A DNA stretch of 64,000 bases from Chitinophagaceae bacterium (GTDB lineage Bacteria > Bacteroidota > Bacteroidia > Chitinophagales > Chitinophagaceae), in contig JABFRU010000007.1 in NCBI GenBank assembly GCA_013140985.1, positions 62,001 through 126,000 on the forward strand, in the 5' to 3' direction. The notes under the pieces are model-generated. The model worked only from the letters and a program-made list of their open reading frames with translations, did not search any database and had not been told where the DNA came from. How positions within the stretch are numbered: the stretch's first letter is position 1; each line of letters starts with the position of its first letter. Below, in pieces: positions 42,009-63,896 of this stretch. The position numbers and the translations under genes were made by a program.

Positions 42009-42020
42009 TGATATTAGTCA
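42009..42020. promoter_or_regulatory. FixK/FNR-like box shared by the nos operon and rrf2
   Basis: TGATATTAGTCA (TGA-N6-TCA). On the nos side a perfect -7 element TACTTTTG (complement of 41956-41963) lies 45 nt away. On the rrf2 side CAATTTTG (42044-42051), one mismatch from TAnnTTTG, lies 23 nt away and 3-6 nt before the ATG. Confidence 0.7.
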
Positions 42021-42057
42021 GTTCCTCCCTCATTGGCAGGGGACAATTTTGTAAATG

Positions 42058-42495
42058 ATGTTTTCCAAGTCATTTGGCTATGCTATCCGGAGTATTCTCT
42101 ACCTGGCGCTGATGGAAGAGGAAAAGGATAAGATACAATTAGATGAAATTTCAGAAGAACTGAATGTGCCCCGGTATTTTTTAGCCAAAGTGATGAACAA
42201 ACTGGTAAAGGAAGGGATATTGGATTCAGTAAAAGGTCATAACGGTGGATTCAGCATCAATGAAAAAACATTGTCTGTGAAACTTATCAGCATTATGTCG
42301 CTGACCGGTGAATCATCACAGTTTAGTAAATGTGTGCTTCAGTTGGGAAAGTGTAATGCCTCATATCCCTGCCCGATACATGACCGGGTAGAATTGCTGC
42401 GCCGTGAGTGGCAGGCACTATTCAAAAGTCTTACTATAGGAGACCTGTTGAAAAAGAACGAGAATAATTTTATGAAAAGTCTTATCGCTATTTAA
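42058..42495 (+). CDS. Rrf2 family iron-sulfur regulator
   Basis: About 145 residues; two adjacent ATGs at 42055 and 42058 are both possible. The N-terminal winged helix is typical (SKSFGYAIRSILYLALMEE, LDEISEELNVPRYFLAKVMNKLVKEGILDSVKG, GGFSINE). Three cysteines follow in the sensor loop (KCVLQLGKCNASYPC; C93, C100 and C106 counted from the first ATG), as in IscR/NsrR proteins that bind an Fe-S cluster and respond to NO or redox state. The divergent position suggests that it controls the nos operon. Confidence 0.88.
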   Translation: MFSKSFGYAIRSILYLALMEEEKDKIQLDEISEELNVPRYFLAKVMNKLVKEGILDSVKGHNGGFSINEKTLSVKLISIMSLTGESSQFSKCVLQLGKCNASYPCPIHDRVELLRREWQALFKSLTIGDLLKKNENNFMKSLIAI

Positions 42496-42547
42496 AAGCC
42501 ATAGCCTCTTTTCAGTCTCTTGTCAGGGACAGATTATATGATCAGGA

Positions 42548-43054
42548 TTAAATTGCATTTTTAGAAATTTTTCCCTGAATCTGTTTCATCCATAAATAGC
42601 TGTGTTCTTTTTTAGCAAGAATAACACCCATTGCTACCGCCAGTACTAAAGTACATGGAAATGCAGAGCCAACTCCGAAGGGAGCTATCGCAACAAGGAA
42701 TAGAATTCCGCCAATGGCACCCAATTTTACTAAAGGGGTCTTACCAAGCATTGCTACTGCGATCAGGGCCTGGCAACTTGCAATAAACCCGACAGCCAGA
42801 ACAATATTGCTGCTAAACCAGCCTAAAATAAATTCCCGGTAAAAATTAAAAAAAGTCAGTTCTGCCTCTCCAAGATATGCAGAAGGGTTATTTAATGCAG
42901 TTGTCCAATTGGTCCAGCCAGCCCAGGCAAATAGCATGAAAAATAATAACCGGCCAAGTCGTATATTCTTCCATGTTGCAAACAAGATCAGCAAAGCAAG
43001 ACTGTTAGAAATAATATACAGTATCAAATTGGTGGGATTTTCCAGGCCCTTCAT
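42548..43054 (-). CDS. Small polytopic membrane protein after the cco cluster
   Basis: 168 residues with about four membrane helices (SNSLALLILFATW, LLFFMLFAWAGW, FSSNIVLAVGFIASCQALIAVAML, LGAIGGILFLVAIAPFGVG). The general pattern resembles DoxX-like proteins, but I see no diagnostic motif. It follows the SafE-like gene by 9 nt on the same strand and appears to be the last gene of the cbb3 oxidase transcription unit. Its function is unknown. Confidence 0.7.
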   Translation of the reverse strand: MKGLENPTNLILYIISNSLALLILFATWKNIRLGRLLFFMLFAWAGWTNWTTALNNPSAYLGEAELTFFNFYREFILGWFSSNIVLAVGFIASCQALIAVAMLGKTPLVKLGAIGGILFLVAIAPFGVGSAFPCTLVLAVAMGVILAKKEHSYLWMKQIQGKISKNAI

Positions 43055-43063
43055 ATAATTGTA

Positions 43064-43780
43064 TTACTGATGGCATTCAATTGTTTGTCCTGGTGAATGC
43101 GGAAGCGAGGGGCTGATAAAAGGTATCCCAAGGTCAAGTCCTCTTAATATTAATATCACCCCCATTATAGAAATAAATACCGGGACCAGTTTACGCAGTT
43201 TCATTCTTTGCCTGAAAGAGATCATTGTCCCTGCATACCCCACCAGCATCATGGCAGGTAAAGTACCGGCTCCGAACATCGCCATAAAACCAACACTATG
43301 ACTTATTTCATTAAATGAAAGTGTAGTGGCCAGTGCTATATATACCATTCCACAGGGCAGCAAGCCATTGGCCATTCCCAATAAAAGAAAACTAAATGCA
43401 CCTCCCCGTGATCGTAATACCCGGCCGATCAATTTTTGCACTACTGCATATATCTTGTCAAGACCTTTTATATGAATGTTCCTGTGCCTGATGAAATACA
43501 ATGCAGCCAGTAGTAATATGAAAATACCCATTGCAATAGAAAATGATTGCTGGTAACCTGCCAGGTAGATCCTTCTTCCTGCCAAACCAAATAATAAACC
43601 GATTGACGAATAAGTAATGATCCTTCCAAACTGATATAGTAAAAGCGATGCAAATTTTTTTATGGCAGAGAATTGATGAACCGGTAATGCCAGGCTCAGG
43701 GGGCCGCACATACCGATACAATGAAGGCTGCCTGCAGCTCCGAGTGTAAATCCTGATATCATGACCGGCCAAAGCATCAT
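43064..43780 (-). CDS. TauE/SafE-like membrane protein of the cbb3 oxidase cluster
   Basis: 238 residues with six to seven helices and the conserved start GFTLGAAGSLHCIGMCGPLSLALP, where the HCxxMCGP motif marks the sulfite-exporter-like proteins found beside fixH/ccoH. These are thought to act in copper handling or cytochrome assembly rather than in sulfite export. The start overlaps the ccoH stop by 4 nt. Confidence 0.88.
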   Translation of the reverse strand: MMLWPVMISGFTLGAAGSLHCIGMCGPLSLALPVHQFSAIKKFASLLLYQFGRIITYSSIGLLFGLAGRRIYLAGYQQSFSIAMGIFILLLAALYFIRHRNIHIKGLDKIYAVVQKLIGRVLRSRGGAFSFLLLGMANGLLPCGMVYIALATTLSFNEISHSVGFMAMFGAGTLPAMMLVGYAGTMISFRQRMKLRKLVPVFISIMGVILILRGLDLGIPFISPSLPHSPGQTIECHQ

Positions 43781-44214
43781 ACTATGGTCAGCATTTTTTC
43801 TGTGAAATAATTTTTCCCGCCCTTATTCCAGCTGATCTTAACGGTATAATTCCCTGCGGGGATATCAACAGGGCTAAATAATTGTTTTCCCTCTTTATCC
43901 GGGCCCAGAGAAAATTTTCTGTCTTTCTTTGCATCATAAGAGCAATAGAACCAGACATTACCTGATATAACTTCATTCCTCATTTCATCCGGTAATGATA
44001 AAAGAATTCCTGTGGCAGTTTGCTCTAACCGGACTGAACTATTTAATTGATTCGCCCTGTTGGTGCCGTCAATAACCTGCTGGTAGGCGATCTCACTTTT
44101 ATAATAATCTTTTTCTACCAACTCATAATTTGTTTTAACCGAGCGAACAACCAGGTAGATCATACCCCCGCCAAAAACAAGAAAAGCCAGTAATAATTTA
44201 TTTCCCCAATTCAT
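43777..44214 (-). CDS. ccoH: cbb3 oxidase assembly protein CcoH/FixH
   Basis: 145 residues: one N-terminal membrane helix (MNWGNKLLLAFLVFGGGMIYLV) and a periplasmic beta domain with DYYKSEIAYQQVIDGTNRAN, the conserved FixH block, and GNYTVKISW near the end. CcoH interacts with the oxidase subunits during assembly. It is placed between ccoG (17 nt upstream) and the SafE-like gene. Confidence 0.9.
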   Translation of the reverse strand: MNWGNKLLLAFLVFGGGMIYLVVRSVKTNYELVEKDYYKSEIAYQQVIDGTNRANQLNSSVRLEQTATGILLSLPDEMRNEVISGNVWFYCSYDAKKDRKFSLGPDKEGKQLFSPVDIPAGNYTVKISWNKGGKNYFTEKMLTIV

Positions 44215-44231
44215 AGAAAAAAATTTATTTA

Positions 44232-45674
44232 TTAAAATTTACCAAACGGGCCTGCAAAATTTGTACTAAGTGTAGTTATCCGTTTATCTCCTTCGTACAA
44301 ACCTATCTGTAGTTTCATTTTCCGTGCAGTTACAAATTTTCTTGGCAGCACTATGAAAAATGAACCTGATGCCTGGTCCTCCTGTTTCAAATGAATATCA
44401 GTAGCGCCTACCAACTCAATTTTTCCCTCTTCTTTTGCACTGCCTTCAAGACGCAGTGTTACGGGAATATTTTTGAGTGTTTTATTAATTACTTTGATAT
44501 TAAAAAGGTTGGCAAGACTATCTGTTCCCCGTTCAATATACAATGTGCCCCTGGTACGGATGATCGTCCCGTCAATATCTTTACGGCTTATCAGTAATAA
44601 TGTGAGGATCCCTGTAAGAATGATCAATATTACCGTATAGAATTTCATCCGGCCTGTATAGCGTAATTTTTTCCCCTCAGAGATTCCATTCTCAGATGCA
44701 TAACGGATAAGACCTGTGGGACGGTGCACTGCTTCCATCATTTTATTGCAGGCATCAATGCAGGCAGTACAACCAACACATTCCATTTGTGTACCATTAC
44801 GGATATCAATACCGGTAGGACAAACTTTCACACACTGAAAGCAATCGATGCAGTCACCGGTATTTATTTCGGCAGTACCTGCTTTTTTATACTTGTCACG
44901 GGGCTCGCCTCTTTTATGATCATACGCAACGATCATAGAGTTCCTGTCGAGTAATACGCCTTGCAAACGTCCATATGGACATATCACAGTACAGACCTGT
45001 TCCCGGAAATAAGCATAAACGCCATAGAAGACTGCTGAAAAAATAATGATGGCCAGGAAGCCTACGATATGTTCACTTACCGGTTCGCTGATGATCTTTT
45101 TTAATTCATCCATTCCAATGATATAGGAAAGAAAAAAATTGGCGATAATAAACGATAAAAGAAAAAAAGAGAGATGCTTGGTTGTTTTTTTAATGACCTT
45201 CTCAGTATTCCAGGGGGCATTTTTCAATAATTTTTGTTTGGCTGCATCGCCTTCTATCAGGTATTCCACTTTCCGGAAAAGCATTTCCATGAAAATAGTT
45301 TGCGGGCAAACCCATCCGCAAAACAAACGACCGAATGCCGCCGTGAAAAGAACAATAAAGACAATAAAAGTCACCATTGTCAACCCGAAGATGAAAAAAT
45401 CCTGCGGCCAGAATATTTTACCAAAGATGATGAACTTACTTTCAGTGATATTGAAGAGGAACAAGGGCCTTCCATTCATCTTGATAAAAGGAAGAGTAAA
45501 GAACAATGCAAAAAAACCCCAACTGACCCAGGTACGGATATTATAAAAACGACCTTTGGGTTTTTGTGCAAATATCCAATTCCTTTTTCCTTTTGCATCA
45601 ACAGTGGCAATCCTGTCACGGAACGATTCTGCTACATCATCCTGTGTTTTCTTATCTGTGGGGGCTGGATTCAC
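44232..45674 (-). CDS. ccoG: Cytochrome c oxidase accessory protein CcoG (FixG/RdxA)
   Basis: 480 residues. Membrane helices in the first half carry GRLFCGWVCPQTIFMEMLFRKVE, and VCTVICPYGRLQG follows. The central polyferredoxin holds two [4Fe-4S] motifs (CIDCFQCVKVCPTGID and CVGCTACIDACN). A C-terminal immunoglobulin-like domain ends the protein. CcoG is a copper reductase used in building the CuB site of cbb3 oxidase. The length is normal. Confidence 0.93.
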   Translation of the reverse strand: MNPAPTDKKTQDDVAESFRDRIATVDAKGKRNWIFAQKPKGRFYNIRTWVSWGFFALFFTLPFIKMNGRPLFLFNITESKFIIFGKIFWPQDFFIFGLTMVTFIVFIVLFTAAFGRLFCGWVCPQTIFMEMLFRKVEYLIEGDAAKQKLLKNAPWNTEKVIKKTTKHLSFFLLSFIIANFFLSYIIGMDELKKIISEPVSEHIVGFLAIIIFSAVFYGVYAYFREQVCTVICPYGRLQGVLLDRNSMIVAYDHKRGEPRDKYKKAGTAEINTGDCIDCFQCVKVCPTGIDIRNGTQMECVGCTACIDACNKMMEAVHRPTGLIRYASENGISEGKKLRYTGRMKFYTVILIILTGILTLLLISRKDIDGTIIRTRGTLYIERGTDSLANLFNIKVINKTLKNIPVTLRLEGSAKEEGKIELVGATDIHLKQEDQASGSFFIVLPRKFVTARKMKLQIGLYEGDKRITTLSTNFAGPFGKF

Positions 45675-45690
45675 TTTGCGTTTTATTATT

Positions 45691-49394: not shown

Positions 49395-49464
49395 ATCTTC
49401 AATTATGGCGGTAAAAATATTCCCGGGCAAATGGCCAGAAGATAACAGGCATCAAGCCAAAAAC

Positions 49465-49490: not shown

Positions 49491-51884
49491 CTAAAGTTTT
49501 AGCCTGCGGGCCAGCAGGTTACTGCTGCCGAAAGTTATCACCAGGATGCTGAGGGAACTGGCGGGCATCAGGATGGCAGCTATAAGAGGAGACAATGCTC
49601 CCTGTACAGCAAAATACAATCCTATAATATTATATACAATGGATAATACGAAACTGGTGGTAACAATATTTTTGTTAGCGCTGCAAAGCCGGATGAATTT
49701 TGTAAGTCGTGGCAATTGTTTCGCCTCAATGATAGCATCACTGGCGGGTGTGAAATTATTGGTTTGCTCAGCAACGGCAATACCGATATCGCTTTGCTTT
49801 AATGCTCCTGCATCATTGAGTCCGTCGCCGATCATCATCACCTTGTTTCCTTTTTGCTGCAAATACTGAATATATCTCAGTTTATCTTCAGGCTTTTGAT
49901 AAAACCGGAGTGTAACATTGTTACCCATCATTTTTTTAAGATTTTCCTTTTCCGCTTCGTTATCGCCTGATAGAACAGATAAATGATAATTGTTCTTCAA
50001 CCCGGATAATAATGTTGTTATATCATCCCGGTAATGATTCTTAAAAAGAAAAAAACCCTGTGTCTTATTTTCAAAGCTGACAAAAATAGCGGTCCCTAAC
50101 CGGCGATCTACCTGGCCGGTCACAAAATGATAAGAGCCTATTTTCAGCAGATCCTCTCCTGCAAAACCTTCGATACCCTCCCCTGCTGTTTCCTTAAACC
50201 CGATAACATCTAATTTTTTTGTTTGCCCAATATGCCGGCTCAGTGCTTTACTGAGCGGATGAGAAGAACAGGCGGCCAAAGCGGCCACCTGTTGAAGTTG
50301 ATAAGCAGTAAGCATGGTTCCGCTATAGGATATATCCTGGAACTGGGTGCTGGTCAATGTACCCGTTTTGTCAAAGACAATATGTGTTGTGCCGGCAATA
50401 TCTTCGATCGTTTGTGCATTGCGCAGGTAAAATTTGTTACGGCTGAGTATCTGTAAAATGTTTCCATTGGTAAATGTGTTGGACAACAATAAAGCACAGG
50501 GACAAGCAATGATAAAAATAGCTGTGACGGCGGGCCATAATCTTTCCTGGTCATGAACCATCCAATATATAGCAGTGCCGGCCGCAATGGCAAAAACAAT
50601 ATAGGTGAAATAACGGCTTAACAAATGAACGAAAGAGGTATTTGATTTTTCCTTTTTATTTTTCAACTCTTCCCTGTTCCATAATTGTGTAAGATAACTT
50701 TGTGCCACTTCTTTTACCACCAGTATCTCAATATTGCCTTCGGTTTGTTTGCCCCCTGCATAGACCAGTTCGCCCACTTCTTTTAGTATGGGAACAGATT
50801 CGCCGGTAACAAAACTATAATCAATAAATGCTTTGCCTCTTGTCAATATTCCGTCGGCGGGGATCAACTCTTCATTATGAATAAGCAACGTGTTGCCGGG
50901 CTTAATATCCGGCAAGGCAGTTGGGATCTCTTTTCCCTCAGTAAGAACAGAAACAGCCACCGGGAAATAAGAAGTATAATCTCTTTCAAAAGAAAGCTGG
51001 CGGTATGTTTTGTCCTGCAATATTCTTCCTGCCAGCATAAAAAAAACAATGCCTGTCATTGAATCAAAATAACCCCCGCCGGAGCCATCTATCACTTCCC
51101 ATGCGCTGCGGATAAATGTAATAATGATAGCCAAAGCAATGGGCGCATCTATATTCAGGAATTTATGTTTCAGGCTTTTCCAGGATGATTCATAAAATGG
51201 CTGAGCAGAGTAAAGCAATACAGGGATTGCCAGCAAAAAATTGATCCAGCGAAAACTATTACGAAGCGCTGTTTCGGTAGCATCGATACCCAGGTATTCC
51301 GGAAAACTCATCAGCATGATATTTCCAAAACAAAAGCCTGCAATACCCAGTTTGAATACCATTCCCTTATTGATAGCCGGTCTTTTTTGATCAAGATCAT
51401 TGAGACTGATATATGGCTCATACCCAATACTGGCAAGCGTTTCAACCACATCCTGGAGCGATATTTTTTGCACTGAATAAACAACAGCCACTTCTTTGCG
51501 GATAAAATTCACTTTACTGGAAATGATATTTTCATCAAGACGGTGGAGATTTTCAAGGAGGTAAAGACAGGAACTGCAATGCATCTGCGGCAGGTAAAAA
51601 GTAACATGGGCCTGTACTTCGTCCTGGAAACTGATAAGCCGGGATTGTATCTTTTTATCTGACAGGAAATCAAATTTTCCCTTTCTTATTTTACTTCGCT
51701 GATTGATCCCCGGGTTTTTATTCAGGTCGTAGTAATCGCACAACTCATTTTGATCCAGTATCTGGAACACCATTTTGCAACCTTCGCAGCAAAATTTTTT
51801 CTTGCCAATCGCTATATTATTATCGGGGCAGTTCTCCCCGCAATGATAGCAATGGGTCGCTTCAGCGATTGATGGTGCATTCAT
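49491..51884 (-). CDS. ccoI: Copper-translocating P-type ATPase CcoI (FixI)
   Basis: 797 residues. The N-terminal Cys-rich motif (CYHCGENC and CCEGC, residues 12-36) typical of CcoI/FixI is followed by a heavy-metal domain with HCSSC. The ATPase core has the membrane CPC in IIACPCALLLS, phosphorylation site DKTGTLT, TGES in the actuator and MIGDGLNDAGAL. It exports Cu(I) towards the periplasmic side for CuB assembly in cbb3 oxidase. It is transcribed from its own promoter 96 nt before ccoS. Confidence 0.94.
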   Translation of the reverse strand: MNAPSIAEATHCYHCGENCPDNNIAIGKKKFCCEGCKMVFQILDQNELCDYYDLNKNPGINQRSKIRKGKFDFLSDKKIQSRLISFQDEVQAHVTFYLPQMHCSSCLYLLENLHRLDENIISSKVNFIRKEVAVVYSVQKISLQDVVETLASIGYEPYISLNDLDQKRPAINKGMVFKLGIAGFCFGNIMLMSFPEYLGIDATETALRNSFRWINFLLAIPVLLYSAQPFYESSWKSLKHKFLNIDAPIALAIIITFIRSAWEVIDGSGGGYFDSMTGIVFFMLAGRILQDKTYRQLSFERDYTSYFPVAVSVLTEGKEIPTALPDIKPGNTLLIHNEELIPADGILTRGKAFIDYSFVTGESVPILKEVGELVYAGGKQTEGNIEILVVKEVAQSYLTQLWNREELKNKKEKSNTSFVHLLSRYFTYIVFAIAAGTAIYWMVHDQERLWPAVTAIFIIACPCALLLSNTFTNGNILQILSRNKFYLRNAQTIEDIAGTTHIVFDKTGTLTSTQFQDISYSGTMLTAYQLQQVAALAACSSHPLSKALSRHIGQTKKLDVIGFKETAGEGIEGFAGEDLLKIGSYHFVTGQVDRRLGTAIFVSFENKTQGFFLFKNHYRDDITTLLSGLKNNYHLSVLSGDNEAEKENLKKMMGNNVTLRFYQKPEDKLRYIQYLQQKGNKVMMIGDGLNDAGALKQSDIGIAVAEQTNNFTPASDAIIEAKQLPRLTKFIRLCSANKNIVTTSFVLSIVYNIIGLYFAVQGALSPLIAAILMPASSLSILVITFGSSNLLARRLKL

Positions 51885-51897
51885 TAGCTGCTAAAAT

Positions 51898-51919
51898 AGC
51901 CCGGCAAAACCGCCGGGCT
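51898..51919 (-). promoter_or_regulatory. GC-rich perfect hairpin just before ccoI
   Basis: AGCCCGGC (51898-51905) and GCCGGGCT (51912-51919), an 8-bp perfect stem with a 6-nt loop. It ends 13 nt from the ccoI ATG. It lies between the FixK-like box and the predicted -7 element, so it may be DNA structure rather than a leader RNA. If transcription starts further upstream it could block translation or end transcription. Confidence 0.5.
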
Positions 51920-51943
51920 GGTGACCATTCTCAAAGAAAAATG

Positions 51944-51955
51944 TGATTAAAGTCA
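51944..51955 (-). promoter_or_regulatory. FixK/FNR-like box of ccoI
   Basis: TGATTAAAGTCA. The -7-like element TATTTTAG (complement of 51891-51898), one mismatch, lies exactly 45 nt downstream on the minus strand and only 6 nt before the ccoI ATG, which predicts an almost leaderless mRNA. Confidence 0.65.
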
Positions 51956-52002: not shown

Positions 52003-52014
52003 TGATCTTAATCA
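52003..52014 (+). promoter_or_regulatory. FixK/FNR-like box of ric
   Basis: TGATCTTAATCA (half-sites TGAT and ATCA perfect). A -7-like element TTTCTTTG (52038-52045), one mismatch, lies exactly 23 nt downstream, 30-33 nt before the ric start. Confidence 0.7.
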
Positions 52015-52078
52015 TCTTTTTTTATTGGCCATCTCCTTTTCTTTGAAACTTAGAATAATAAAATGCTTTTTTTAAATG

Positions 52079-52810
52079 ATGATTGATAGAAAATCGTTCG
52101 TATCTGATATTGTAGCACAGGATTACCGCACAGCAGATGTTTTTCGCCGGCATGATATCACTTATTGTTGCGGGGGTAAATGGCCATTGGATATGGCTTG
52201 TGAGCTGCGGGGATTAGATGCCGATAAAATAAAAACCGAGCTTGAAGCGGCTACCCGGACTATTACGATCCCTCATTTGATCGACTTTAATAACTGGAAT
52301 ATTGATTTTCTCACCAATTATATTGTTGAGATACATCACAACTATTTAAAGACATCGTTACCGCTGACACACAAAATGCTGGAAGAGTTTGTAGAAGAGC
52401 ATCGGAAAAAATTTTCTCATCTTGATGAACTGGAGCTCAAGTTTACCGCTCTTGTCAAGCAGCTTCATTCTTCCATTTCAAAGGAAGAAGAAACATTGTT
52501 TCCATATATAAGGCAGATCGTACATGCACAAAATGCTAAGGAGCCCTATGCTGCCCTGCTGGTACGTACCCTTCGCAAACCGGTTGAAGGAGTAATGAGC
52601 AATGGTCATAACAGGATCAATGATCTTATCATGGAGATCCGGCACCTGACCAATTCGTATAATCCACCGGAAAATGTTTGCACCAGCCATAAGGTGGTGA
52701 TAGCAAAATTGAAAGAATTAGACAATGACCTTGTACAACATTTATATCTTGAACAATCAGTTCTATTTCCCAGGGTGTCGGCTATCGAGAAAGAATTACT
52801 TGGTTACTAA
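52079..52810 (+). CDS. ric: Di-iron iron-sulfur-cluster repair protein RIC (ScdA/YtfE)
   Basis: About 243 residues; ATGs at 52076 and 52079 are adjacent. The N-terminal DUF542 region has RRHDITYCCGGKWPLD (the CCGG block). A hemerythrin-like four-helix domain has ligands in VEIHHNYLKTSLP, HSSISKEEETLFPYI, GHNRINDLI and YLEQSVLFPRV. RIC proteins repair Fe-S clusters damaged by NO or oxidants. This fits a cell that handles N2O and runs Fe-S enzymes such as the nearby serine lyase. Confidence 0.92.
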   Translation: MIDRKSFVSDIVAQDYRTADVFRRHDITYCCGGKWPLDMACELRGLDADKIKTELEAATRTITIPHLIDFNNWNIDFLTNYIVEIHHNYLKTSLPLTHKMLEEFVEEHRKKFSHLDELELKFTALVKQLHSSISKEEETLFPYIRQIVHAQNAKEPYAALLVRTLRKPVEGVMSNGHNRINDLIMEIRHLTNSYNPPENVCTSHKVVIAKLKELDNDLVQHLYLEQSVLFPRVSAIEKELLGY

Positions 52811-55354: not shown

Positions 55355-56185
55355 TCATTCGTGGATGCACATTACCGGCACCTGTGATTGAAAGACCAGT
55401 TGTTTTGTGCTGCTGGGGCTGAAAATGCCTTCAATCAGTTTGTGTTTTTTGGGAATGGCGATAACCAGGTCCAGGTCATTAGATCTTGCAAATTCAAGAA
55501 TTCCGTCTTCCACATCAGGATGGTTTATAAAATGATATTGAGGATGCATATCGTCGAAAATACTATGCAGGTAAAATAACTCCCCGGGAGTATCGGGCTT
55601 GAAATGTTTGTCTTTATAATCAATGTTTAAAATATGCAACTCGGCAGAAAACGTCTTTATTATTTCTTTGATAGAACCAACCGGCGTAGTTGCCGCTACC
55701 TGCTTAAAATCGCAGGCAAATCCTATTTTCCTGATACCTTCTCCATATTGTTTCCCGGCTGGTATTGCAATGACAGGCCAGGCCAGGTGACGGATGGCAC
55801 CGAGTGTGGTACTTCCAAAGACGATTTTTTCAAGCCCTGTTTTTCCTTTGGCTCCCATAACTACAATAAAGGGTTTGACTTCGTTAGATAATTTTTCTAA
55901 CTGGTCGATCGTATCTCCCAACACTGCACATGTCAGCACTTTGACCTTTTTGGAACTGCGGGACTCTATCTTTTGTTTTACTATATCCAACTGCGTCTCA
56001 CTGTCTTTTCTCAATTCATCTACTGAAACAAGTGCCAATGGTATTTCTGATGCATAGGCCAACGGAACCTGGTAAATATTGACTAATAAGATCTCTGCGT
56101 TTATAGCTAAAGCCATATCAACTGCAAAATTTGCGGCGTTAATAGAAACCGGCGAAAAATCGGTTGGCACCAATATCGTTTTCAT
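55355..56185 (-). CDS. Tandem universal stress protein
   Basis: 276 residues made of two UspA domains. The first (about 1-150) begins KTILVPTDFSPVSINAANFAVDMA and has the ATP-binding MGAKGKTGLEKIVFGSTTLGAI motif (G2xG9GST). The second half starts KIGFACDFKQVA and ends KKHKLIEGIFSPSSTKQLVFQSQVPVMCIHE, and has lost the strict nucleotide motif. Usp proteins support survival during energy and oxygen stress. It is the first gene of an operon with DUF1003, a flavin protein and CHAD, and carries a FixK-like box upstream. Confidence 0.92.
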   Translation of the reverse strand: MKTILVPTDFSPVSINAANFAVDMALAINAEILLVNIYQVPLAYASEIPLALVSVDELRKDSETQLDIVKQKIESRSSKKVKVLTCAVLGDTIDQLEKLSNEVKPFIVVMGAKGKTGLEKIVFGSTTLGAIRHLAWPVIAIPAGKQYGEGIRKIGFACDFKQVAATTPVGSIKEIIKTFSAELHILNIDYKDKHFKPDTPGELFYLHSIFDDMHPQYHFINHPDVEDGILEFARSNDLDLVIAIPKKHKLIEGIFSPSSTKQLVFQSQVPVMCIHE

Positions 56186-56236
56186 GGTTGTTTTATTTTC
56201 AGGTATAAATATAGACGACAGGTTTTCCTATGCAGC

Positions 56237-56248
56237 TGATTATTGTCA
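56237..56248 (-). promoter_or_regulatory. FixK/FNR-like box of the usp operon
   Basis: TGATTATTGTCA, extended to the palindrome GCTGA-N6-TCAGC. The -7-like element TATATTTA (complement of 56206-56213), one mismatch, lies exactly 23 nt downstream on the minus strand, 20 nt before the usp ATG. Confidence 0.72.
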
Positions 56249-56342
56249 GCAAAGAGGATGATTATCTTACGTTCAAAATGGGGCAGGTAAAATCTAATTT
56301 GGCAGCCATAATAGAGAATCACATATTACATCCTGTTTTCTG

Positions 56343-58009: not shown

Positions 58010-58043
58010 TGATCTTTGTCATAGCAGTTATTGATGTTATTCA
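58010..58043 (+). promoter_or_regulatory. Tandem FixK/FNR-like boxes of the L,D-transpeptidase gene
   Basis: Box 1 TGATCTTTGTCA (58010-58021) and box 2 TGATGTTATTCA (58032-58043) are 22 bp apart centre to centre. The -7-like element CATTTTTG (58067-58074), one mismatch, is 45 nt from box 1 and 23 nt from box 2, and 4 nt before the ATG. Both activator positions seem occupied at one promoter. Confidence 0.68.
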
Positions 58044-58078
58044 TAAACTGAAAATATTTTATTGGACATTTTTGTTTT

Positions 58079-59386
58079 ATGAAGTACCTGTTCTTATCAA
58101 TTTTTACAATTGCCTGCTTGTGTCATCCTGCCAATGGTCAAAACCAACCCGGGACATTACTACCAGGCCAAAAAGAAAAACTATTGTATCCCTCTCTTGT
58201 CAACAGGTTCTACTTACTGAAAAATAATAAACCATGCTGGATGGGAGCAGGCAATGAAAGTTTTTTATTACGCCAACAGCTTATAATCGCAGTTGACAGC
58301 GCTTATTATTGGGGATTTGCAGAAAACAAATATCATACTGAAGAATTATCCTACTATGTAAATAATAATATTTCAGATACTGTCTTGCTCCGGCAGGCTG
58401 ATCGTCTCTTCACAGATGCCGCAATTGCTTTATGTAAAGACCTGTACCATGGTTATAAAATGCATCCCTGGGTTGGCTATGACCAGCTTTCCGGCAAATA
58501 TGAAGATGGAAACAATGAATATTTGCTCCGGCGTTTACTTACTGTTTCAACAGCTGAACAATTCCAGCTACTCATCGCTGCATTAGAACCGGCACAGAAA
58601 GAATACTTACTACTAAAGAATGCATTGCGGGAACACAAAGAAAAAGAGCATAAGGATACAGTAACCATGATCCGGTTATCAATGAATTATTTCCGCTGGA
58701 TACATCATTTTAGTTTTGAACAACTCATTGTTATTAATCTCCCCGAAGCAAGGATGCGGTATTATGAAAAAGACAGTATCATTTTCAATATGAAAGTAGT
58801 GGTGGGGAAAACGTCAACCCCCACTCCACGATTTGCCACCGTATGCGACCAGGTAATTTTGTACCCCTACTGGTATGTTCCCCGCAGCATCACTTTCAAT
58901 GAATACTTACCAAAGATCAAAAGAAATCCTTCCTGGATAGATGCTAACAATATGCAGGTGATCGATGGTTCGGGCAAAGTGATGGATCATTTGAATATGG
59001 ATTGGAGTTCCTTTCATAGCGGCTACTTCCCTTATATAATACGCCAGTCAACCGGATGTGATAATGCATTAGGCGTTATTAAATTCAATATTGTTACACC
59101 CTATGGTGTTTATATGCATGATACCAATAATAAAACGGTTTTTTTATCAGGTCTCCGTTATTTTAGCCATGGATGTATCCGGCTGGAAGAGCCTCTTGAA
59201 TTAGGGAACAGGTTATTAGCGGGCAGGCTGGATACGGCTTATTTGCAATCCTGCTTTAAAGAACAAAAACCAAAGTTCATGCAGCTGGAAAAAACTATAC
59301 CTGTTTTTTCTGTTTATATGCCCGCTGCTGCCACAGCAGAAGGTACTATCCGCTACTATAAAGACATTTACAAATTATTGCGATAG
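58079..59386 (+). CDS. L,D-transpeptidase with scaffold domain (YkuD/YcbB type)
   Basis: 435 residues with a signal peptide (MKYLFLSIFTIACLCHPANG). A helical scaffold region (about 35-215) precedes the YkuD catalytic domain, which has MKVVVGKTSTPTPRF, the MHDTNNK block and the active-site motif FSHGCIRLEEP with catalytic Cys. This is the YcbB/LdtD-like layout, which makes 3-3 crosslinks in peptidoglycan or attaches lipoproteins, in the periplasm. Control by oxygen-response boxes would tie cell-wall crosslinking to low oxygen. Confidence 0.92.
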   Translation: MKYLFLSIFTIACLCHPANGQNQPGTLLPGQKEKLLYPSLVNRFYLLKNNKPCWMGAGNESFLLRQQLIIAVDSAYYWGFAENKYHTEELSYYVNNNISDTVLLRQADRLFTDAAIALCKDLYHGYKMHPWVGYDQLSGKYEDGNNEYLLRRLLTVSTAEQFQLLIAALEPAQKEYLLLKNALREHKEKEHKDTVTMIRLSMNYFRWIHHFSFEQLIVINLPEARMRYYEKDSIIFNMKVVVGKTSTPTPRFATVCDQVILYPYWYVPRSITFNEYLPKIKRNPSWIDANNMQVIDGSGKVMDHLNMDWSSFHSGYFPYIIRQSTGCDNALGVIKFNIVTPYGVYMHDTNNKTVFLSGLRYFSHGCIRLEEPLELGNRLLAGRLDTAYLQSCFKEQKPKFMQLEKTIPVFSVYMPAAATAEGTIRYYKDIYKLLR

Positions 59387-59407: not shown

Positions 59408-59543
59408 AATGACTCAGTTTGAAATCTGCACTTGTAATATGACCACAGAGTTACACAGAGATATTGAGAACCACAGAGCAATTCTCTGCGTAACTCTTAT
59501 CCTCTGCGGTTCTCTGTGGGCCAATTTTTCAAAGTGAGTCACT
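59408..59543. repeat. Nested inverted repeat (MITE-like), CACAGAG type
   Basis: Outer arms TGACTCAGTTTGAAA (59410-59424) and TTTCAAAGTGAGTCA (59527-59541) match at 14 of 15 positions. Inner arms begin CCACAGAGTTACACAGAG (59443-59460) and end with CTCTGCGGTTCTCTGTGGG (59502-59520). The two-layer structure of about 136 bp without a gene suggests a small non-autonomous element. It occupies most of the 241-nt gap before the histidine kinase gene. Confidence 0.7.
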
Positions 59544-59627
59544 ATAAGAAAGTGCTTTTCTCCTTTTTCCCTCAATTAATAGTAACATTGTATCCTGTAA
59601 GACTCACCCCAAACATTCCTGGTATAT

Positions 59628-60854
59628 ATGCTTGATCAGGCACACATGACCTCGCTTTTTGAAAATGCAACGGAAGGCATTATTCTTACAAAGGGGGATG
59701 GTATCATTGTAATGATCAACCCCGCAGCAGAAAAAATGTTTAATTATACTTCGGATGAATTGGTCGGACGATCTATCGATATCCTCATTCCTGACCAGTA
59801 TAAACCCCATCATCATCAATTAAGAGAAGGATTTAATAAGCATCCTTCGAACCGGTCAATGGGTAGCGGCCGGGATCTGAATGGCAGAAAAAAAGATGGC
59901 AGTAATATGCCGGTGGAGGTCAGCCTTAGTCATTACCGGCGGGATGACGAGCTGTTTGTGATTGCATTTATTGTTAACATTACACAGCGAAAAAAGATCG
60001 AGCAAAGCATGTTAGAGCAAAAAGCTGAACTTGAAAAGATCACTGATAAAATAAGACAACTAAATGCAGAACTTGAAATAAAAGTAGAAGAACGAACCCT
60101 CATTTTAAAAGAAGCTTTGCAAAAGCTCGAAGAATCCCAACAGGAACTAAGCGAAGCTTTGGATAAAGAACGACAGTTGAATGAGATCAAAAGCAGGTTT
60201 GTATCCATGGCTTCTCATGAATTCCGCACACCATTGACCACCGTACTCTCTTCCGCCTCTCTTATTTCAAAATATAATGGCGCCAATGACCAGGAAAAAA
60301 GAGAAAAGCATATTGACAGGATCAGGAACTCAGTCAATAACCTGAATGAGGTCCTTGAAGATTTTCTTTCTCTTGGTAAATTGAATGAAGGAAGAGTGAC
60401 AACAAAGATCGAAGAAGTTAATGTAAACGAGGCTGTCGGGGAAACCATTGAGGATATGAAACCTTTACTGAAAAAAGGACAGCATTTTATGTTGCAGACT
60501 GAGACCGGTTGCATGGCTAATACAGACAAAAAATTATTGCATAATATACTGGTCAACCTTTTAAGCAATGCGACAAAATTTTCGGAAGAAAATAAACCTA
60601 TCATTATTTCTACAAAAAGCGAGAAAGATAGAATTATCATTGCTGTAGCTGATGAAGGCATTGGCATCAGCGTCAATGACCAGGAACATTTATTTGCCAG
60701 TTTTTTCCGGGCTGCCAATGCCGGAAATATCCAGGGAACAGGTCTTGGTCTCCATATCGTAAAAAGATATGTGGATATTTTAGGTGGAGAAGTGCAGCTG
60801 CAAAGTGAGCTCAATAAGGGAACGACTATTCAATTCACCATTCCGTGTAATTAA
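59628..60854 (+). CDS. PAS-domain histidine kinase with FixL-like heme-pocket residues
   Basis: 408 residues, no membrane segment. A PAS domain (about 1-125) is followed by a coiled coil (125-190), the phosphoacceptor domain with H197 in SMASHEFRTPLT, and the ATPase domain (NILVNLLSNATKF, ADEGIGIS, GTGLGLHIV). The PAS block YKPHHHQL...SMGSGRDLNGRKKDG aligns with the FixL heme pocket: His62 sits at the proximal His position (Bradyrhizobium FixL His200) and Arg82 at the distal Arg position (Arg220), the same 20 residues apart. The regulator gene follows after 10 nt. Oxygen sensing is likely but not certain, since similar PAS domains without heme exist. Confidence 0.88.
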   Translation: MLDQAHMTSLFENATEGIILTKGDGIIVMINPAAEKMFNYTSDELVGRSIDILIPDQYKPHHHQLREGFNKHPSNRSMGSGRDLNGRKKDGSNMPVEVSLSHYRRDDELFVIAFIVNITQRKKIEQSMLEQKAELEKITDKIRQLNAELEIKVEERTLILKEALQKLEESQQELSEALDKERQLNEIKSRFVSMASHEFRTPLTTVLSSASLISKYNGANDQEKREKHIDRIRNSVNNLNEVLEDFLSLGKLNEGRVTTKIEEVNVNEAVGETIEDMKPLLKKGQHFMLQTETGCMANTDKKLLHNILVNLLSNATKFSEENKPIIISTKSEKDRIIIAVADEGIGISVNDQEHLFASFFRAANAGNIQGTGLGLHIVKRYVDILGGEVQLQSELNKGTTIQFTIPCN

Positions 60855-60864
60855 AACTACTACT

Positions 60865-61920
60865 ATGAAATCTGTTTTAGTAATTGAAGATAATGCCGAC
60901 ATCAGGGAAAATACGGCCGAGATCATGGAATTAGCAGGTTACAAAACTTTTACTGCCGAGAACGGCAAAAAAGGAGTGGAAGTTGCACAACGGGAAAAAC
61001 CTGATATCATAGTTTGTGATATCATGATGCCAGAGTTGGATGGTTATGGTGTGTTGCATTTACTCAAAAAAAATCCTGAGACGGAGCATATTCCTTTTGT
61101 TTTTCTTACGGCCAAAACAGAACGGAGTGATTTCAGGAAGGGGATGGAAATGGGAGCGGATGATTATATCACTAAACCTTTTGAAGAGATAGAATTGTTG
61201 AATGCCGTTGAAATAAGACTAAAAAAAGCAGCAGTACTGGATGCAAAATATACTCCATCGCAGCAAGGGATCAATCAATTTTTGCAAGATGCAAAGAATG
61301 CAGGCCTGATCACTAAATTATCAGAGCAATACAATACCGAGAATTATCCCAAAAAGCAGGTACTCTACCAGGAAGGTAAACGACCGAGAAATCTGTTCCT
61401 GCTCGTAAAAGGCAAAGTAAAAGGAGTTAAAACCAATGAGGATGGCAAAGAATATATTACAGACCTGTTCAGTGATGGTGATTTTATAGGGTATCCTGCA
61501 CTTATAGAAGACAAAAACTATGATGACTCTGCTATTGTGCTTGAAGAAGCCGAGGTTATGCAAATACCCAAAGAAGATTTTATGCAGATGATATACGGGA
61601 ATATGGATGTTGCCATTAAATTCATCCGTATCATTACACAAAACGTAAAAGAAAAAGAAGAAAGATTATTGAACCTCGCTTATAGTTCTCTCCGTAAACG
61701 GGTAGCCAAAGCACTGGTGGATATACATTCAAAATTCAATACAGGTAACGAAAACAAACCGCTGGAGATCTCAAGGGAAGATTTTGCACATTATGTAGGC
61801 ACAGCCACTGAATCTTTGATACGGACATTGAGCGATTTTAAATCAGAGAAACTCATTGAAATCAAAGAAGGAAAAATAGCTGTGGTAAATACGGAAAAAC
61901 TCAAAAATCTTTTGTATTAA
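60865..61920 (+). CDS. Response regulator with receiver fused to CRP/FNR transcription factor
   Basis: 351 residues from the ATG at 60865. A start at 60784 would overlap the kinase gene. Residues 1-120 are a receiver (phospho-acceptor D52 in CDIMMPELDG, Lys104 in DDYITKPF). Residues about 145-270 are a cyclic-nucleotide-type beta-roll (LYQEGKRPRNLFLLVKGKVKG). The C-terminal winged helix has recognition helix TATESLIRTL with E316 and R320 at the CRP/FNR DNA-reading positions. Only one Cys (C51) exists, so no FNR cluster. It is paired with the kinase and probably binds the TGA-N6-TCA boxes of this region. Confidence 0.92.
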   Translation: MKSVLVIEDNADIRENTAEIMELAGYKTFTAENGKKGVEVAQREKPDIIVCDIMMPELDGYGVLHLLKKNPETEHIPFVFLTAKTERSDFRKGMEMGADDYITKPFEEIELLNAVEIRLKKAAVLDAKYTPSQQGINQFLQDAKNAGLITKLSEQYNTENYPKKQVLYQEGKRPRNLFLLVKGKVKGVKTNEDGKEYITDLFSDGDFIGYPALIEDKNYDDSAIVLEEAEVMQIPKEDFMQMIYGNMDVAIKFIRIITQNVKEKEERLLNLAYSSLRKRVAKALVDIHSKFNTGNENKPLEISREDFAHYVGTATESLIRTLSDFKSEKLIEIKEGKIAVVNTEKLKNLLY

Positions 61921-62336
61921 TGATCAGCATCCCGGCTCAGATCAAAGTCTTCCGCCTCTGTGTTTTTGATTATCCCTGTTGATATTTCTTTTCCATGATT
62001 ATTTTGCTGATCCAGTGTCCAGTTATCTGTCATTGTTGTTTCCAGCCATAAATTGCCTGATCTGCGGAATACCTGCGCTGCCAAACTAAATTTGTCTTTC
62101 AGTATTCTTTCCAGTTCATTAACTTTCATTTCTCCCTGGATAGTGATATTTCCATCTGTCACCACCTTTTGGATATCTCCAATCTTTCTGCTGGACGGCA
62201 CCATCTGAGCAGCAGAATAATCCGCATTCGAAAGCGATCTTTTATTAAAAAACTCAAGTTTTAAAAAAGGAAACTCTCTGTTGAATTCTTGCTGGATCTC
62301 GCTAATAAACCGGTTAGGTACGATATTCAGGTGCAT
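61917..62336 (-). CDS. Conserved hypothetical cytosolic protein, about 139 residues
   Basis: Start at ATG 62334-62336 (MHLNIVPNRFISEIQQEFNREFPFLKLEFF), where the folded domain seems to begin. Earlier in-frame starts (62402, 62408, TTG 62417) would add a basic stretch. The sequence is mixed alpha/beta, with KIGDIQKVVTDGNITIQGEMKVNELERILKDKFSLAAQVFRRSGNLWLETTMTDNWTLDQQN in the centre, and a charged acidic tail. No signal peptide is seen. I do not recognise a named family. It converges on the regulator gene with a 4-nt overlap of ends, and has a FixK-like box far upstream. Confidence 0.72.
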   Translation of the reverse strand: MHLNIVPNRFISEIQQEFNREFPFLKLEFFNKRSLSNADYSAAQMVPSSRKIGDIQKVVTDGNITIQGEMKVNELERILKDKFSLAAQVFRRSGNLWLETTMTDNWTLDQQNNHGKEISTGIIKNTEAEDFDLSRDADH

Positions 62337-62542
62337 GATGATAGTTTTAATATTCTGAAGTATTTTTTGGAGACATCCAGGCAGAACCATCTGTTTCTTC
62401 ATTGTCATTAAATGCAATCGCTTGTACTTTTTTTGGTTTTATCTTTTTGAATGATGCTGCCTCCGGATATATACTTTTAAATTATCGGATAAAATTAGGG
62501 GAACGCTGCCTCCACCAGGATGATGTATCACAGTTGCCTCTA

Positions 62543-62554
62543 TGATTATAATCA
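62543..62554 (-). promoter_or_regulatory. FixK/FNR-like box upstream of the hypothetical gene
   Basis: TGATTATAATCA, a perfect palindrome. The -7-like element TAATTTTA (complement of 62490-62497), one mismatch, lies exactly 45 nt downstream on the minus strand. The predicted transcript start near 62485 gives a leader of about 150 nt to the ATG at 62336, or about 70-80 nt to the upstream starts. Confidence 0.7.
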
Positions 62555-62597
62555 AGTAACCTCTTTACATTAGGGATATTCTTTGTGAAAAAATAAA

Positions 62598-62638
62598 GAC
62601 CGGAAATGCTTTAGAAACTGTCCAGGTCTCTATATTAA
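62598..62638 (-). terminator. Probable terminator of the lipoprotein gene
   Basis: GACCGGA (62598-62604) pairs with TCC-A-GGTC (62631-62638) with one bulged base and a 26-nt loop. On the minus strand it is followed by TTTATTTTTT. It lies 13 nt after the lipoprotein gene ends. The loop is large, so confidence is moderate. Confidence 0.5.
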
Positions 62639-62650
62639 ACTTTTACCTTC

Positions 62651-63307
62651 TTACATAGGCTTTAACACAGGTGCCTTTTGATCGCTGATCACATAGTTCT
62701 TTTTCATATCCTTTACGATCATTTGACCATACTCGTGGCTCAGCCTTTGTGAAGAAGCAGGATCAAAGGACTGGCTTTGGGATGAATAAAGTAATTGGCC
62801 CGATGTCATTTCATAAAAATTACTTTCCCAGAAATACTTTGTATTCTCAACAAAATAACCCGGGGTATAGACTCGTTCGAAGGTTGTCCGGTAATAATTG
62901 TAAAAATTGGGGTACTCGTTATAAGGCGCATACTCAAATCTACCCTTCACATAATATTTTTCCTTTGCCTTATCAAGCAGGGTAACAGTAAGAACGGCAT
63001 CAACGCCGGAATTGCGAAGTTTGGCAATAGCATCTTTTTCACTCATGTTTTCAAAGGCTTTCGGGTTATACTCTTCGCAGGAACAAACCGCATTATAACC
63101 AAGCTCTTTGAGGTCATCAACAATATGCTGCTCCATTTTTTCCCGAAGGGTTTTGTCTGCATCACGGATAAGGCCCAGCACAACGATTTTTTTATACTCT
63201 TTGGGCTGAACATCCACAGCCCTCCACGAACTGGTTATATGAGAGGTAGTACCACAACCGGTCATAAAGAAAAGAGATAACAAGGCTAACTTTGTAAAGT
63301 GTTTCAT
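62651..63307 (-). CDS. Lipoprotein of unknown function
   Basis: 218 residues from the ATG at 63305-63307 (MKHFTKLALLSLFFMTGC). An upstream in-frame start at 63373 would overlap the bacterioferritin gene. Lipobox MTGC with Cys18, followed by GTTSHITSSWRAVD, the start typical of DUF4136-like and related envelope lipoproteins. A Rossmann-like block (KKIVVLGLIRDADKTLREKMEQHIVDDL) and GVDAVLTVTLLDK follow, resembling CsgG/TolB N-terminal folds. It lies 19 nt after bacterioferritin on the same strand and so may share its promoter. Confidence 0.78.
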   Translation of the reverse strand: MKHFTKLALLSLFFMTGCGTTSHITSSWRAVDVQPKEYKKIVVLGLIRDADKTLREKMEQHIVDDLKELGYNAVCSCEEYNPKAFENMSEKDAIAKLRNSGVDAVLTVTLLDKAKEKYYVKGRFEYAPYNEYPNFYNYYRTTFERVYTPGYFVENTKYFWESNFYEMTSGQLLYSSQSQSFDPASSQRLSHEYGQMIVKDMKKNYVISDQKAPVLKPM

Positions 63308-63326
63308 AAAAAAAGTTTTTAAATAT

Positions 63327-63794
63327 TTAATGCAATTGTTCCACCAGGTAATTTTTGATACCGATCTTTCCAATCAGGTCTATTTGTGTTTCCAGCCAGT
63401 CAAGATGTTTTTCTTCGTCTGTTAAGATGGACCGGAGAAGCTCCACTGAACCATTATCACCCTCATCATAGCAAAGAGAAATTCCTTTATTATAGGCGCT
63501 GTTGGCTGATTCTTCGGCATCACGGTCATTTTTAAATTGATGCTCAAGATCATTCCCTATCACTACTTTTTCCATAGAGCTTACATCGGGAATACCTTCA
63601 AGAAAAAGGATCCTTTCTATTAATTTTTCTGCATGCTTCATTTCTTCAATAGCCCTTTTTTTAATGATATCGTGGAGTTTGACGTAACCCCAGTTTGCAC
63701 ACATTTCGGAATGAACCATGTATTGCCCGATAGCACTTAACTCATCTGCCAGCAGCATGTTCAGCGTTTTGATCACTTTTTCATTTCCTTTCAT
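63327..63794 (-). CDS. bfr: Bacterioferritin
   Basis: 155 residues, normal for bacterioferritin. Ferroxidase and heme features: LNMLLADELSAIGQYMVHSEM, KKRAIEEMKHAEKLIERILFLEG (E and H ligands of the di-iron site) and LTDEEKHLDWLETQIDLI (second EExxH). Met48 or a nearby residue could be the heme ligand between subunits, but I cannot assign it surely. It stores iron and removes Fe(II) and peroxide in the cytosol. A FixK-like box and a perfect -7 element lie upstream. Confidence 0.93.
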   Translation of the reverse strand: MKGNEKVIKTLNMLLADELSAIGQYMVHSEMCANWGYVKLHDIIKKRAIEEMKHAEKLIERILFLEGIPDVSSMEKVVIGNDLEHQFKNDRDAEESANSAYNKGISLCYDEGDNGSVELLRSILTDEEKHLDWLETQIDLIGKIGIKNYLVEQLH

Positions 63795-63884
63795 GACTAT
63801 TTTATTTAAGGGGTGATTAAGAATTTCAGATCAAATGTATCTCTGCCAGCCATTGATCCTGCTGACCATCATCACTGCCTATGA

Positions 63885-63896
63885 TGATACTTGTCA
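63885..63896 (-). promoter_or_regulatory. FixK/FNR-like box of bfr
   Basis: TGATACTTGTCA. The -7 element TACATTTG (complement of 63832-63839), a perfect TAnnTTTG match, lies exactly 45 nt downstream on the minus strand, 37 nt before the bfr ATG. Beyond it to the window end there is no gene, only a 16-bp palindrome at 63911-63926 (AAAACAAG-CTTGTTTT). Confidence 0.75.

What the first reader, a model, noticed from the sequence alone, without database searches (positions are those of the whole stretch)
42009..63896. A compact oxygen-type regulon: nine TGA-N6-TCA boxes locked at 45 or 23 nt from a Bacteroidota -7 element
Boxes at 42009, 49465, 51944, 52003, 56237, 58010, 58032, 62543 and 63885 (12 bp each). 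Class-I-like spacing of exactly 45 nt to a TAnnTTTG-like element is seen for nos, ccoS, ccoI, L,D-transpeptidase box 1, the 62336 gene and bfr. Class-II-like spacing of exactly 23 nt is seen for rrf2, ric, usp and L,D-transpeptidase box 2. The two spacings differ by 22 nt, two DNA turns, as for CRP/FNR activators at about -61.5 and -41.5. Two elements are perfect and the others have one mismatch. The target genes (N2O reductase, cbb3 oxidase and its copper pump, Fe-S repair, stress protein, iron storage) form a sensible low-oxygen/NO set. The 12-mer alone would occur by chance many times in 64 kb, so the constant spacing is the real evidence.
Basis: partly seen in the sequence, partly recalled or inferred. 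Interest (0 to 1): 0.9.

Follow-up and report, generated by a model that had tools for sequence, protein, structure and literature searches.

The report
Tandem low-oxygen switch boxes in Bacteroidota
A set of respiration and stress genes in this bacterium share a precise DNA switch, usually two copies of a short palindrome 22 letters apart at a fixed distance from the start signal, apparently read by a neighbouring two-part system that pairs a FixL-like oxygen sensor with an FNR-like activator.

Summary
The spacing is real. In 80 loci of related genomes, TGA-N6-TCA precedes a perfect TAnnTTTG at 45 nt 77 times and at 23 nt 60 times; no other spacing exceeds 6, also after removing similar sequences. 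The split into class I and class II promoters is mostly wrong: promoters usually carry BOTH boxes, 22 nt apart (98 pairs; next best 11). In the window 6 of 10 promoters have two perfect boxes, 2 have a 5/6 second box, usp keeps a half-site, ric is single. With the -7 element at -12 to -5 (PMC9723704) the boxes centre at -41.5 and -63.5. Likely reader: the REC-cNMP-HTH_Crp protein at 60865-61920, beside a kinase whose PAS domain best matches FixL/DosP haem sensors. Tandem sites track this regulator in 73 genomes of the class (mean 3.58 versus 0.63); in another genus 17 of 22 sites lie within 13 kb of it. Against: this genome alone gives a weak spacing test (perfect element: 4 at 23 nt, 5 at 22 nt), and the 23-nt box also goes with REC-less FNR relatives. 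Binding, oxygen sensing and transcript starts are inferred.

The parts
41987..41998 (.). perfect box; 23-nt box for nos, 45-nt box for rrf2
42009..42020 (.). perfect box; 45-nt box for nos, 23-nt box for rrf2
41956..41963 (-). -7 element TACTTTTG of the cytochrome c / nos genes (41412-41882, 39352-41355)
   Evidence: model R1 37.1 bits, best hit in the genome
42044..42051 (+). -7 element CAATTTTG of rrf2 (42055-42495); start codon within 1 nt of the inferred +1
   Evidence: R1 30.1 bits
49443..49454 (-). proximal box TGATGCCTGTTA, 5/6
49412..49419 (-). -7 element TATTTTTA, one mismatch
51944..51955 (.). perfect distal box of the P-type ATPase gene (49491-51884, ccoI type)
51922..51933 (.). perfect proximal box of the same gene
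51891..51898 (-). -7 element TATTTTAG, one mismatch; start codon 2 nt from the inferred +1
52003..52014 (.). single 23-nt box of ric (52076-52810, ScdA_N + hemerythrin); place at 45 nt matches 3 of 6; weakest member (R1 8.9 bits, E 0.14)
52038..52045 (+). -7 element TTTCTTTG of ric, one mismatch
56237..56248 (.). 23-nt box of usp (55355-56185)
56259..56270 (-). 45-nt place of usp: downstream half TCA kept (GTAAGATAATCA)
56206..56213 (-). -7 element TATATTTA of usp, one mismatch
58010..58021 (.). perfect distal box of the L,D-transpeptidase gene (58079-59386)
58032..58043 (.). perfect proximal box of the same gene
58067..58074 (+). -7 element CATTTTTG, one mismatch; inferred +1 falls on the ATG at 58079
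62543..62554 (.). perfect distal box of the 166-aa orphan gene (61917-62417)
62521..62532 (-). proximal box TGTGATACATCA, 5/6
62490..62497 (-). -7 element TAATTTTA, one mismatch
63885..63896 (.). perfect box; 45-nt for the ferritin-like gene (63327-63794), 23-nt for the AI-2E transporter
63863..63874 (.). perfect box; 23-nt for the ferritin-like gene, 45-nt for the AI-2E transporter
63832..63839 (-). -7 element TACATTTG of the ferritin-like gene, perfect
63920..63927 (+). -7 element TTGTTTTG facing the AI-2E transporter gene (from 63946), one mismatch
59628..60854 (+). sensor histidine kinase, PAS + HisKA + HATPase; PAS like FixL/DosP, haem-ligand His and distal Arg aligned
60865..61920 (+). 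response regulator REC + cNMP_binding + HTH_Crp, likely reader of the boxes (opens the frame at GTG 60784; Met at 60865 directly precedes REC)

Best explanation
These are activator sites of one regulon read by a phosphorylation-controlled FNR-type protein. A FixL-like PAS kinase (59628-60854) would sense low O2 through haem and phosphorylate the REC domain of its neighbour (60865-61920), whose CRP/FNR-type half then binds TGA-N6-TCA. The proximal dimer sits at -41.5 against RNA polymerase at promoters without a clear -33 element; in most targets a second dimer binds two helical turns upstream at -63.5, on the same face. Targets are a micro-oxic respiratory set (cbb3 oxidase, a P-type ATPase, N2O-reductase genes) plus iron, NO/Fe-S and stress genes. 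Shown here by computation: the box, the 22-nt tandem, the locked spacing in relatives, co-occurrence and closeness to the regulator gene, and PAS similarity to haem sensors. Inferred: binding, phosphorelay, haem and O2 sensing, activation rather than repression, both dimers bound at once.
For: Spacing at 23 and 45 nt in relatives, also after removing similar sequences; box-to-box 22 nt, 98 pairs. Target clusters in relatives (167 strict promoters): P-type ATPase 33, cbb3 subunit I 31, cytochrome c 22, rrf2 21, ric 13, Hsp20-like 9, the orphan's family 9, fewer of USP and hemN (cytochrome c, rrf2, ric and USP named by likeness to window genes). A promoter model from 90 relatives' promoters, none from this genome, gives 12 hits at E <= 0.01 in this genome: 7 in the window, 1 just beyond, 4 elsewhere. 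Kinase PAS: 13 of 14 solved matches at E <= 1e-6 are FixL or DosP-type haem PAS, 1s66 (yddU) counted as DosP from memory; ligand His kept in 52 of 52 near and 28 of 31 far kinases aligned, Arg in 51 of 52 and 24 of 31. Tandem counts: 43 class genomes with the regulator mean 3.58, 30 without 0.63, p = 6e-6 uncorrected for kinship. Another genus: 2 or more sites in 7 of 20 genomes with it versus 3 of 130 without, p = 2.5e-5; 17 of the 22 sites in the 20 lie within 13 kb of the regulator gene, 9 of them within 0.2 kb (hand count). In this genome the REC-less FNR relative of G150 matches only the regulator's own CRP part at E <= 1e-20.
Against: No binding, expression or transcript-start data. In this genome alone, with a perfect element, 22 nt (5) is as common as 23 nt (4). 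Eleven of 43 genomes with the regulator have no tandem site; eight of 30 without it have one or more (G150 6, G273 4, G017 3, G111 2, four with 1). The perfect 23-nt promoter is more common with the REC-less FNR alone (mean 7.84) than with the REC form alone (4.89), so proximal boxes are not specific to this regulator. Loci of families f7, f8 and f9 (6 loci) show no box at either spacing with a perfect element. This genome has two more HTH_Crp proteins over the cut-off. In 28 of 80 relatives' loci no kinase met my criterion (16 of these had partial matches from residue 68 on, possibly cut by the locus end, 12 had none), and in 3 more it lies about 9 kb away.
Confidence: 0.66

Rival explanations
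1. One reading: two separate promoter classes, class I with one box at 45 nt and class II with one at 23 nt.
For: ric in the window has only the 23-nt box; 16 loci of the f5 family have almost only 23 nt (<=1 mismatch: 92 versus 9 at 45 nt; perfect: 22 versus 4).
Against: 103 of 226 promoters in relatives have both boxes perfect, and where one is imperfect that place is still enriched exactly in register. In the window 6 of 10 have both perfect.
Confidence: 0.07
2. The boxes are read by an FNR-type protein that senses O2 itself through N-terminal cysteines; the REC protein is a side player.
For: Genomes with only the REC-less relative also have the 23-nt promoters, and a few have tandem arrays; the recognition helix is nearly the same.
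Against: No such gene found in this genome at E <= 1e-20; tandem arrays follow the REC form within one genus and sit near its gene. It may hold in other genomes.
Confidence: 0.12
3. The kinase senses something other than O2 (NO, redox or a metabolite) and the regulon answers to that.
For: Targets include ric, hemerythrin-type and nos genes, which fit NO as well; haem PAS domains can bind NO and CO (recalled).
Against: Closest solved PAS domains are the O2 sensors FixL and DosP; cbb3 oxidase and its ATPase are classic micro-oxic targets (recalled).
Confidence: 0.2
4. Chance palindromes plus a loose promoter pattern.
For: TGA-N6-TCA alone is common, and this genome's own perfect-element scan is not sharp.
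Against: Sharp spacing in independent genomes with flat controls.
Confidence: 0.01

Closest known systems
FixL-FixJ-FixK cascade of rhizobia (recalled)
   Same: FixL-like haem-PAS kinase by sequence, a receiver, and a CRP/FNR-type output near cbb3 oxidase genes; the FixK box TTGA-N6-TCAA (recalled) contains this box.
   Different: Receiver and CRP/FNR output are one protein here, so no separate FixJ or transcription of fixK is needed; tandem boxes; Bacteroidota -7 element.
E. coli FNR/CRP class II promoters (recalled)
   Same: Box centre at -41.5, with the same 23-nt gap from the core box to the first base of the -10/-7 element.
   Different: A second box at -63.5 in most targets; no Fe-S cysteines and no CRP-type Arg in the recognition helix.
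R. leguminosarum hFixL-FxkR-FixK (PMC7888657; only the abstract start seen in listings)
   Same: FixL-type sensor leading to a CRP/FNR-type activator.
   Different: [quoted passage not shown] here the activator itself carries the receiver.

Membership tests
FNR (Fe-S O2 sensor) | CRP/FNR fold: cNMP domain + HTH_Crp | tested here: met
FNR (Fe-S O2 sensor) | N-terminal cysteine cluster for the Fe-S centre | tested here: not met
   sequence: no Cys in the CRP part, one in REC. Of six REC-less relatives, L208, L211 and L212 show C-x2-C-x8-C, L209 C-x2-C-x11-C, L210 and L213 only C-x2-C in the stretch shown
CRP (cAMP) | Arg at CRP position 180 in the recognition helix, reading TGTGA (recalled) | tested here: not met
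   helix TATESLIR has Thr there; logos show no TGTGA extension
CRP (cAMP) | cAMP binding | not tested
   cNMP domain present, ligand residues not examined
FixL-type haem kinase | haem PAS with proximal His and distal Arg | tested here: met
   by sequence only; the His and Arg roles are recalled
FixL-type haem kinase | haem binding and O2-controlled kinase activity | not testable with these tools
   needs protein
FixJ | REC + LuxR-type HTH (recalled) | tested here: not met
   REC + cNMP + HTH_Crp
Bacteroidota sigma-A promoter | TAnnTTTG -7 element | tested here: met
   in the window 2 of 10 elements are perfect, 8 have one mismatch
Bacteroidota sigma-A promoter | -33 TTG element (recalled) | tested here: not met
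   no clear TTG columns 18-24 nt upstream of the -7 element in either logo
class II CRP/FNR promoter | activator centred at -41.5 | tested here: inconclusive
   met if the -7 box lies at -12 to -5 as mapped in F. psychrophilum (PMC9723704, passages); no start mapped in this organism

The most novel reading that the evidence does not exclude
A one-step oxygen circuit of this class: a haem FixL-type kinase phosphorylates an FNR-type activator directly, and phosphorylation makes two dimers assemble cooperatively 22 bp apart (-63.5/-41.5), a sharper switch than single-site FNR/FixK promoters; the tandem array is the mark of the REC-fused form, the lone -41.5 box that of FNR-type activators in general.
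Probability: 0.35. Interest if true: 0.78.

Novelty: new variant of a known kind. Interest (0 to 1): 0.64.

Why it matters
It offers a genome-readable rule for predicting low-oxygen control in a large group of Bacteroidota, including genes for N2O reductase, the N2O-consuming enzyme. It also suggests that the rhizobial FixL-FixJ-FixK cascade has a shortened counterpart with receiver and FixK-like activator in one protein, testable by deleting or rephasing boxes. I made no dedicated literature search on nos control in Bacteroidota.

Tried and rejected
Separate class I/II promoters: rejected, see rivals. 'The only CRP/FNR protein of the genome': rejected, one search finds three over the cut-off, though the other two helices (TAREVITR, SSREVISR) carry Arg at the CRP-180 place. 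'REC replaced the Cys sensor in one lineage': the tree does not settle it; REC and FNR sets each need 2 changes and one origin is neither shown nor excluded; its bootstrap had not settled. Third in-register box: no triple 22-nt arrays of perfect boxes in the 80 loci, but one each in G150 and G007 (overlapping hits). Box pairs at 24 nt (11): some resemble one another, some look like coding sequence; not pursued.

Limits: my REC/noREC label is wrong for many rows (pattern too narrow); one search used protein length (over 330 aa) instead. One search scored 150 of 2038 first-look candidates; one search scored 6 and one search scored 13 candidates per genome at most, so some regulators may be missed. 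The 226 promoters are a loose set (one element mismatch, one perfect box); the 167 are stricter. One search aligned 90 of the 131 sequences listed, thinned by eye. Downstream genes are the longest frame opening within 300 or 400 nt. Of the ten own-genome loci given to the script, L152, L156, L166 and L167 gave no promoter over its threshold; other weak model hits were not followed. 45 nt was not searched over whole genomes.

Papers: searches returned nothing (all terms required); two searches listed papers that look unrelated; some searches listed neighbouring topics. Of PMC9723704 and PMC8510549 I saw passages; the latter predicts CRP/FNR regulons in a wastewater community and has no occurrence of 'receiver', 'tandem' or 'Chitinophag'. 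The library is open-licence papers only, so 'not in print' is not claimed.
Full report
OBSERVATION. The nine boxes exist where stated. With up to one element mismatch the window has 9 box-element pairs at 23 nt and 8 at 45 nt, the other 108 spacings averaging 0.53, largest 3. With a perfect TAnnTTTG, TGA-N6-TCA stands 45 nt upstream 77 times (55 loci) and 23 nt upstream 60 times (40 loci); no other spacing from 0 to 109 exceeds 6, and five control patterns give 0-1 there. After dropping pairs 55% or more identical the counts are 52 and 38; spacings outside 22-24 and 44-46 average 0.72, largest 6.

A RESULT AGAINST. Only 2 of the 10 window promoters have a perfect element, so the perfect-element scan has little power here; the 22-nt hits may be chance or a variant (in relatives 22 nt has 3).

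THE TANDEM. Box-to-box start distances in the 80 loci peak at exactly 22 nt: 98 pairs, 11 at 24, at most 5 at any other distance up to 80. Of 226 loosely defined promoters 103 have both boxes perfect, 86 only the 45-nt one, 37 only the 23-nt one. In the 29 '45-only' promoters with a perfect element the 23-nt place is still enriched in register (19 of 29 match 4 or 5 of 6 bases; at any other shift within 6 nt at most 3 do), chiefly by its downstream TCA (T 100%, C 93%, A 97%). In the strict set the downstream half is perfect in 30 of 51 and the upstream half in 20 of 51; for 13 promoters with an imperfect 45-nt box the figures are 12 and 1 (these sets were chosen by total match, which favours partial second boxes). 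So 23 and 45 are usually two places in one array. In the window: both perfect for nos, rrf2, the P-type ATPase, L,D-transpeptidase, the ferritin-like gene and the AI-2E transporter; 5/6 second boxes for the cbb3 genes and the 166-aa orphan; a half-site for usp; ric single and weak (8.9 bits, E 0.14). Two arrays serve divergent genes. The exact two-box pattern occurs 5 times in 3.86 Mb, 4 of them here.

GEOMETRY. In Flavobacterium psychrophilum the -7 box lies at -12 to -5 (PMC9723704, passages). On that scale the boxes span -47 to -36 and -69 to -58, centres -41.5 and -63.5. No clear -33 TTG appears in the logos. In 167 promoters of relatives, ATG codons opening 60 aa or more occur once at 0-2 nt after the -7 element and 15 times at 3-5 nt, with a broader peak near 18-22 nt, in keeping with a start about 4-5 nt downstream and some leaderless messages; in the window rrf2, the ATPase and the transpeptidase fit within 0-2 nt.

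TARGETS. Strict promoters in relatives lead to the P-type ATPase (33), cbb3 subunit I (31), cytochrome c (22), rrf2 (21), ric (13), Hsp20-like (9), the orphan's family (9), and in ones to threes USP, hemN, nos and others, including the regulator gene itself in L120. The sequence-only model of 90 relatives' promoters has 12 hits at E <= 0.01 in this genome: 7 in the window, one before a USP gene just beyond it, and 4 elsewhere, before an acetyl-CoA hydrolase/transferase, a beta-eliminating lyase (tryptophanase type from memory), a WD40-like repeat protein and a 138-aa unknown.

REGULATOR. 60865-61920 is REC + cNMP_binding + HTH_Crp. Its recognition helix TATESLIR has the Glu and Arg that read the TGA core but neither CRP Arg180 nor FNR Ser212 (positions recalled), in keeping with a site without conserved outer bases. 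It has no FNR cysteine cluster. The PAS domain of the kinase in front matches 14 solved sequences at E <= 1e-6, 13 of them FixL or DosP-type haem sensors, aligned without gaps through the haem-ligand His (kept in 52 of 52 near and 28 of 31 far kinases) and the distal Arg (51 of 52, 24 of 31). Such a kinase was found in 52 of 80 relatives' loci (49 next to the regulator) and in 31 of 40 further loci; it was picked by likeness to this kinase, which favours conservation.

WHO READS THE BOXES. Of 296 genomes of the phylum 43 have the REC form, all in this class. In the 73 class genomes the exact tandem averages 3.58 with it and 0.63 without (non-zero in 32 of 43 and 8 of 30); by content: REC only 4.48 (27), both 2.06 (16), REC-less FNR only 0.72 (25), neither 0.20 (5). 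The p value 6e-6 ignores kinship, so I repeated it in one other genus: 22 sites in 20 genomes with the REC form, 36 in 130 without; 17 of the 22 lie within 13 kb of the regulator gene, 9 of these within 0.2 kb. Against: 11 of 43 have none, and four class genomes without it have 2-6. The perfect 23-nt promoter follows the FNR family more broadly: 7.84 per genome with REC-less FNR only, 4.89 with REC only, 12.12 with both, reversed-pattern control 0.75-0.89. Loci around the REC form outside this family: 22 loci outside f5 give 9 at 45 nt and 7 at 23 nt against a mean of 0.35 and 23 tandem pairs, though f7, f8 and f9 give none at either spacing; 16 f5 loci show almost only the 23-nt box. I read the -41.5 box as general to FNR-type activators in this class and the tandem as tied mainly to the REC form.

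MECHANISM AND LIMITS. Best reading: low O2, haem kinase, phosphorylated REC-FNR activator, dimers at -63.5 and -41.5, activation. Shown: sites, spacing, co-occurrence, closeness, domain make-up. Inferred: every biochemical step. The tree of CRP parts does not settle whether the REC form arose once. The searches listed in Tried and rejected showed no description of this circuit in the held library, which lacks most subscription papers.

Noticed in passing
42055, 51884, 58079: Start codons lie within 0-2 nt of the inferred transcript start: rrf2, the P-type ATPase and the L,D-transpeptidase look leaderless; relatives show ATG 3-5 nt after the -7 element 15 times and at 0-2 nt once.
   Followed up: partly
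63946 to beyond 64000: AI-2E-family transporter gene faces away from the ferritin-like gene and shares its tandem array; a USP gene with its own array follows just outside the window (L146).
   Followed up: partly
61917-62417: 166-aa orphan with no Pfam match; relatives with a regulon-type promoter in 9 of the 80 loci.
   Followed up: no
L149 and L143: A beta-eliminating lyase (tryptophanase-like) and an acetyl-CoA hydrolase/transferase elsewhere in the genome carry regulon-type promoters, hinting at amino-acid or fermentative metabolism under the same control.
   Followed up: partly
L212, L208, L211: REC-less FNR-type proteins with C-x2-C-x8-C and nearly the same recognition helix; in G150 a tandem array lies about 40 bp from the 3' end of the gene, between it and the next gene.
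   Followed up: partly
G150:C5:324937-324992 and G007:C2:2518584-2518639: Three in-register boxes 22 nt apart.
   Followed up: no
L043 12121, L044 12185, L047 12164: Box pairs spaced 24 rather than 22 nt downstream of the regulator gene in some relatives; meaning unknown.
   Followed up: no
G000: C34:34204, C38:14144, C48:1489, C65:49921, C69:24225: Five box-element pairs at 22 nt with a perfect element in the own genome, as many as at 23 nt; variant or chance.
   Followed up: no
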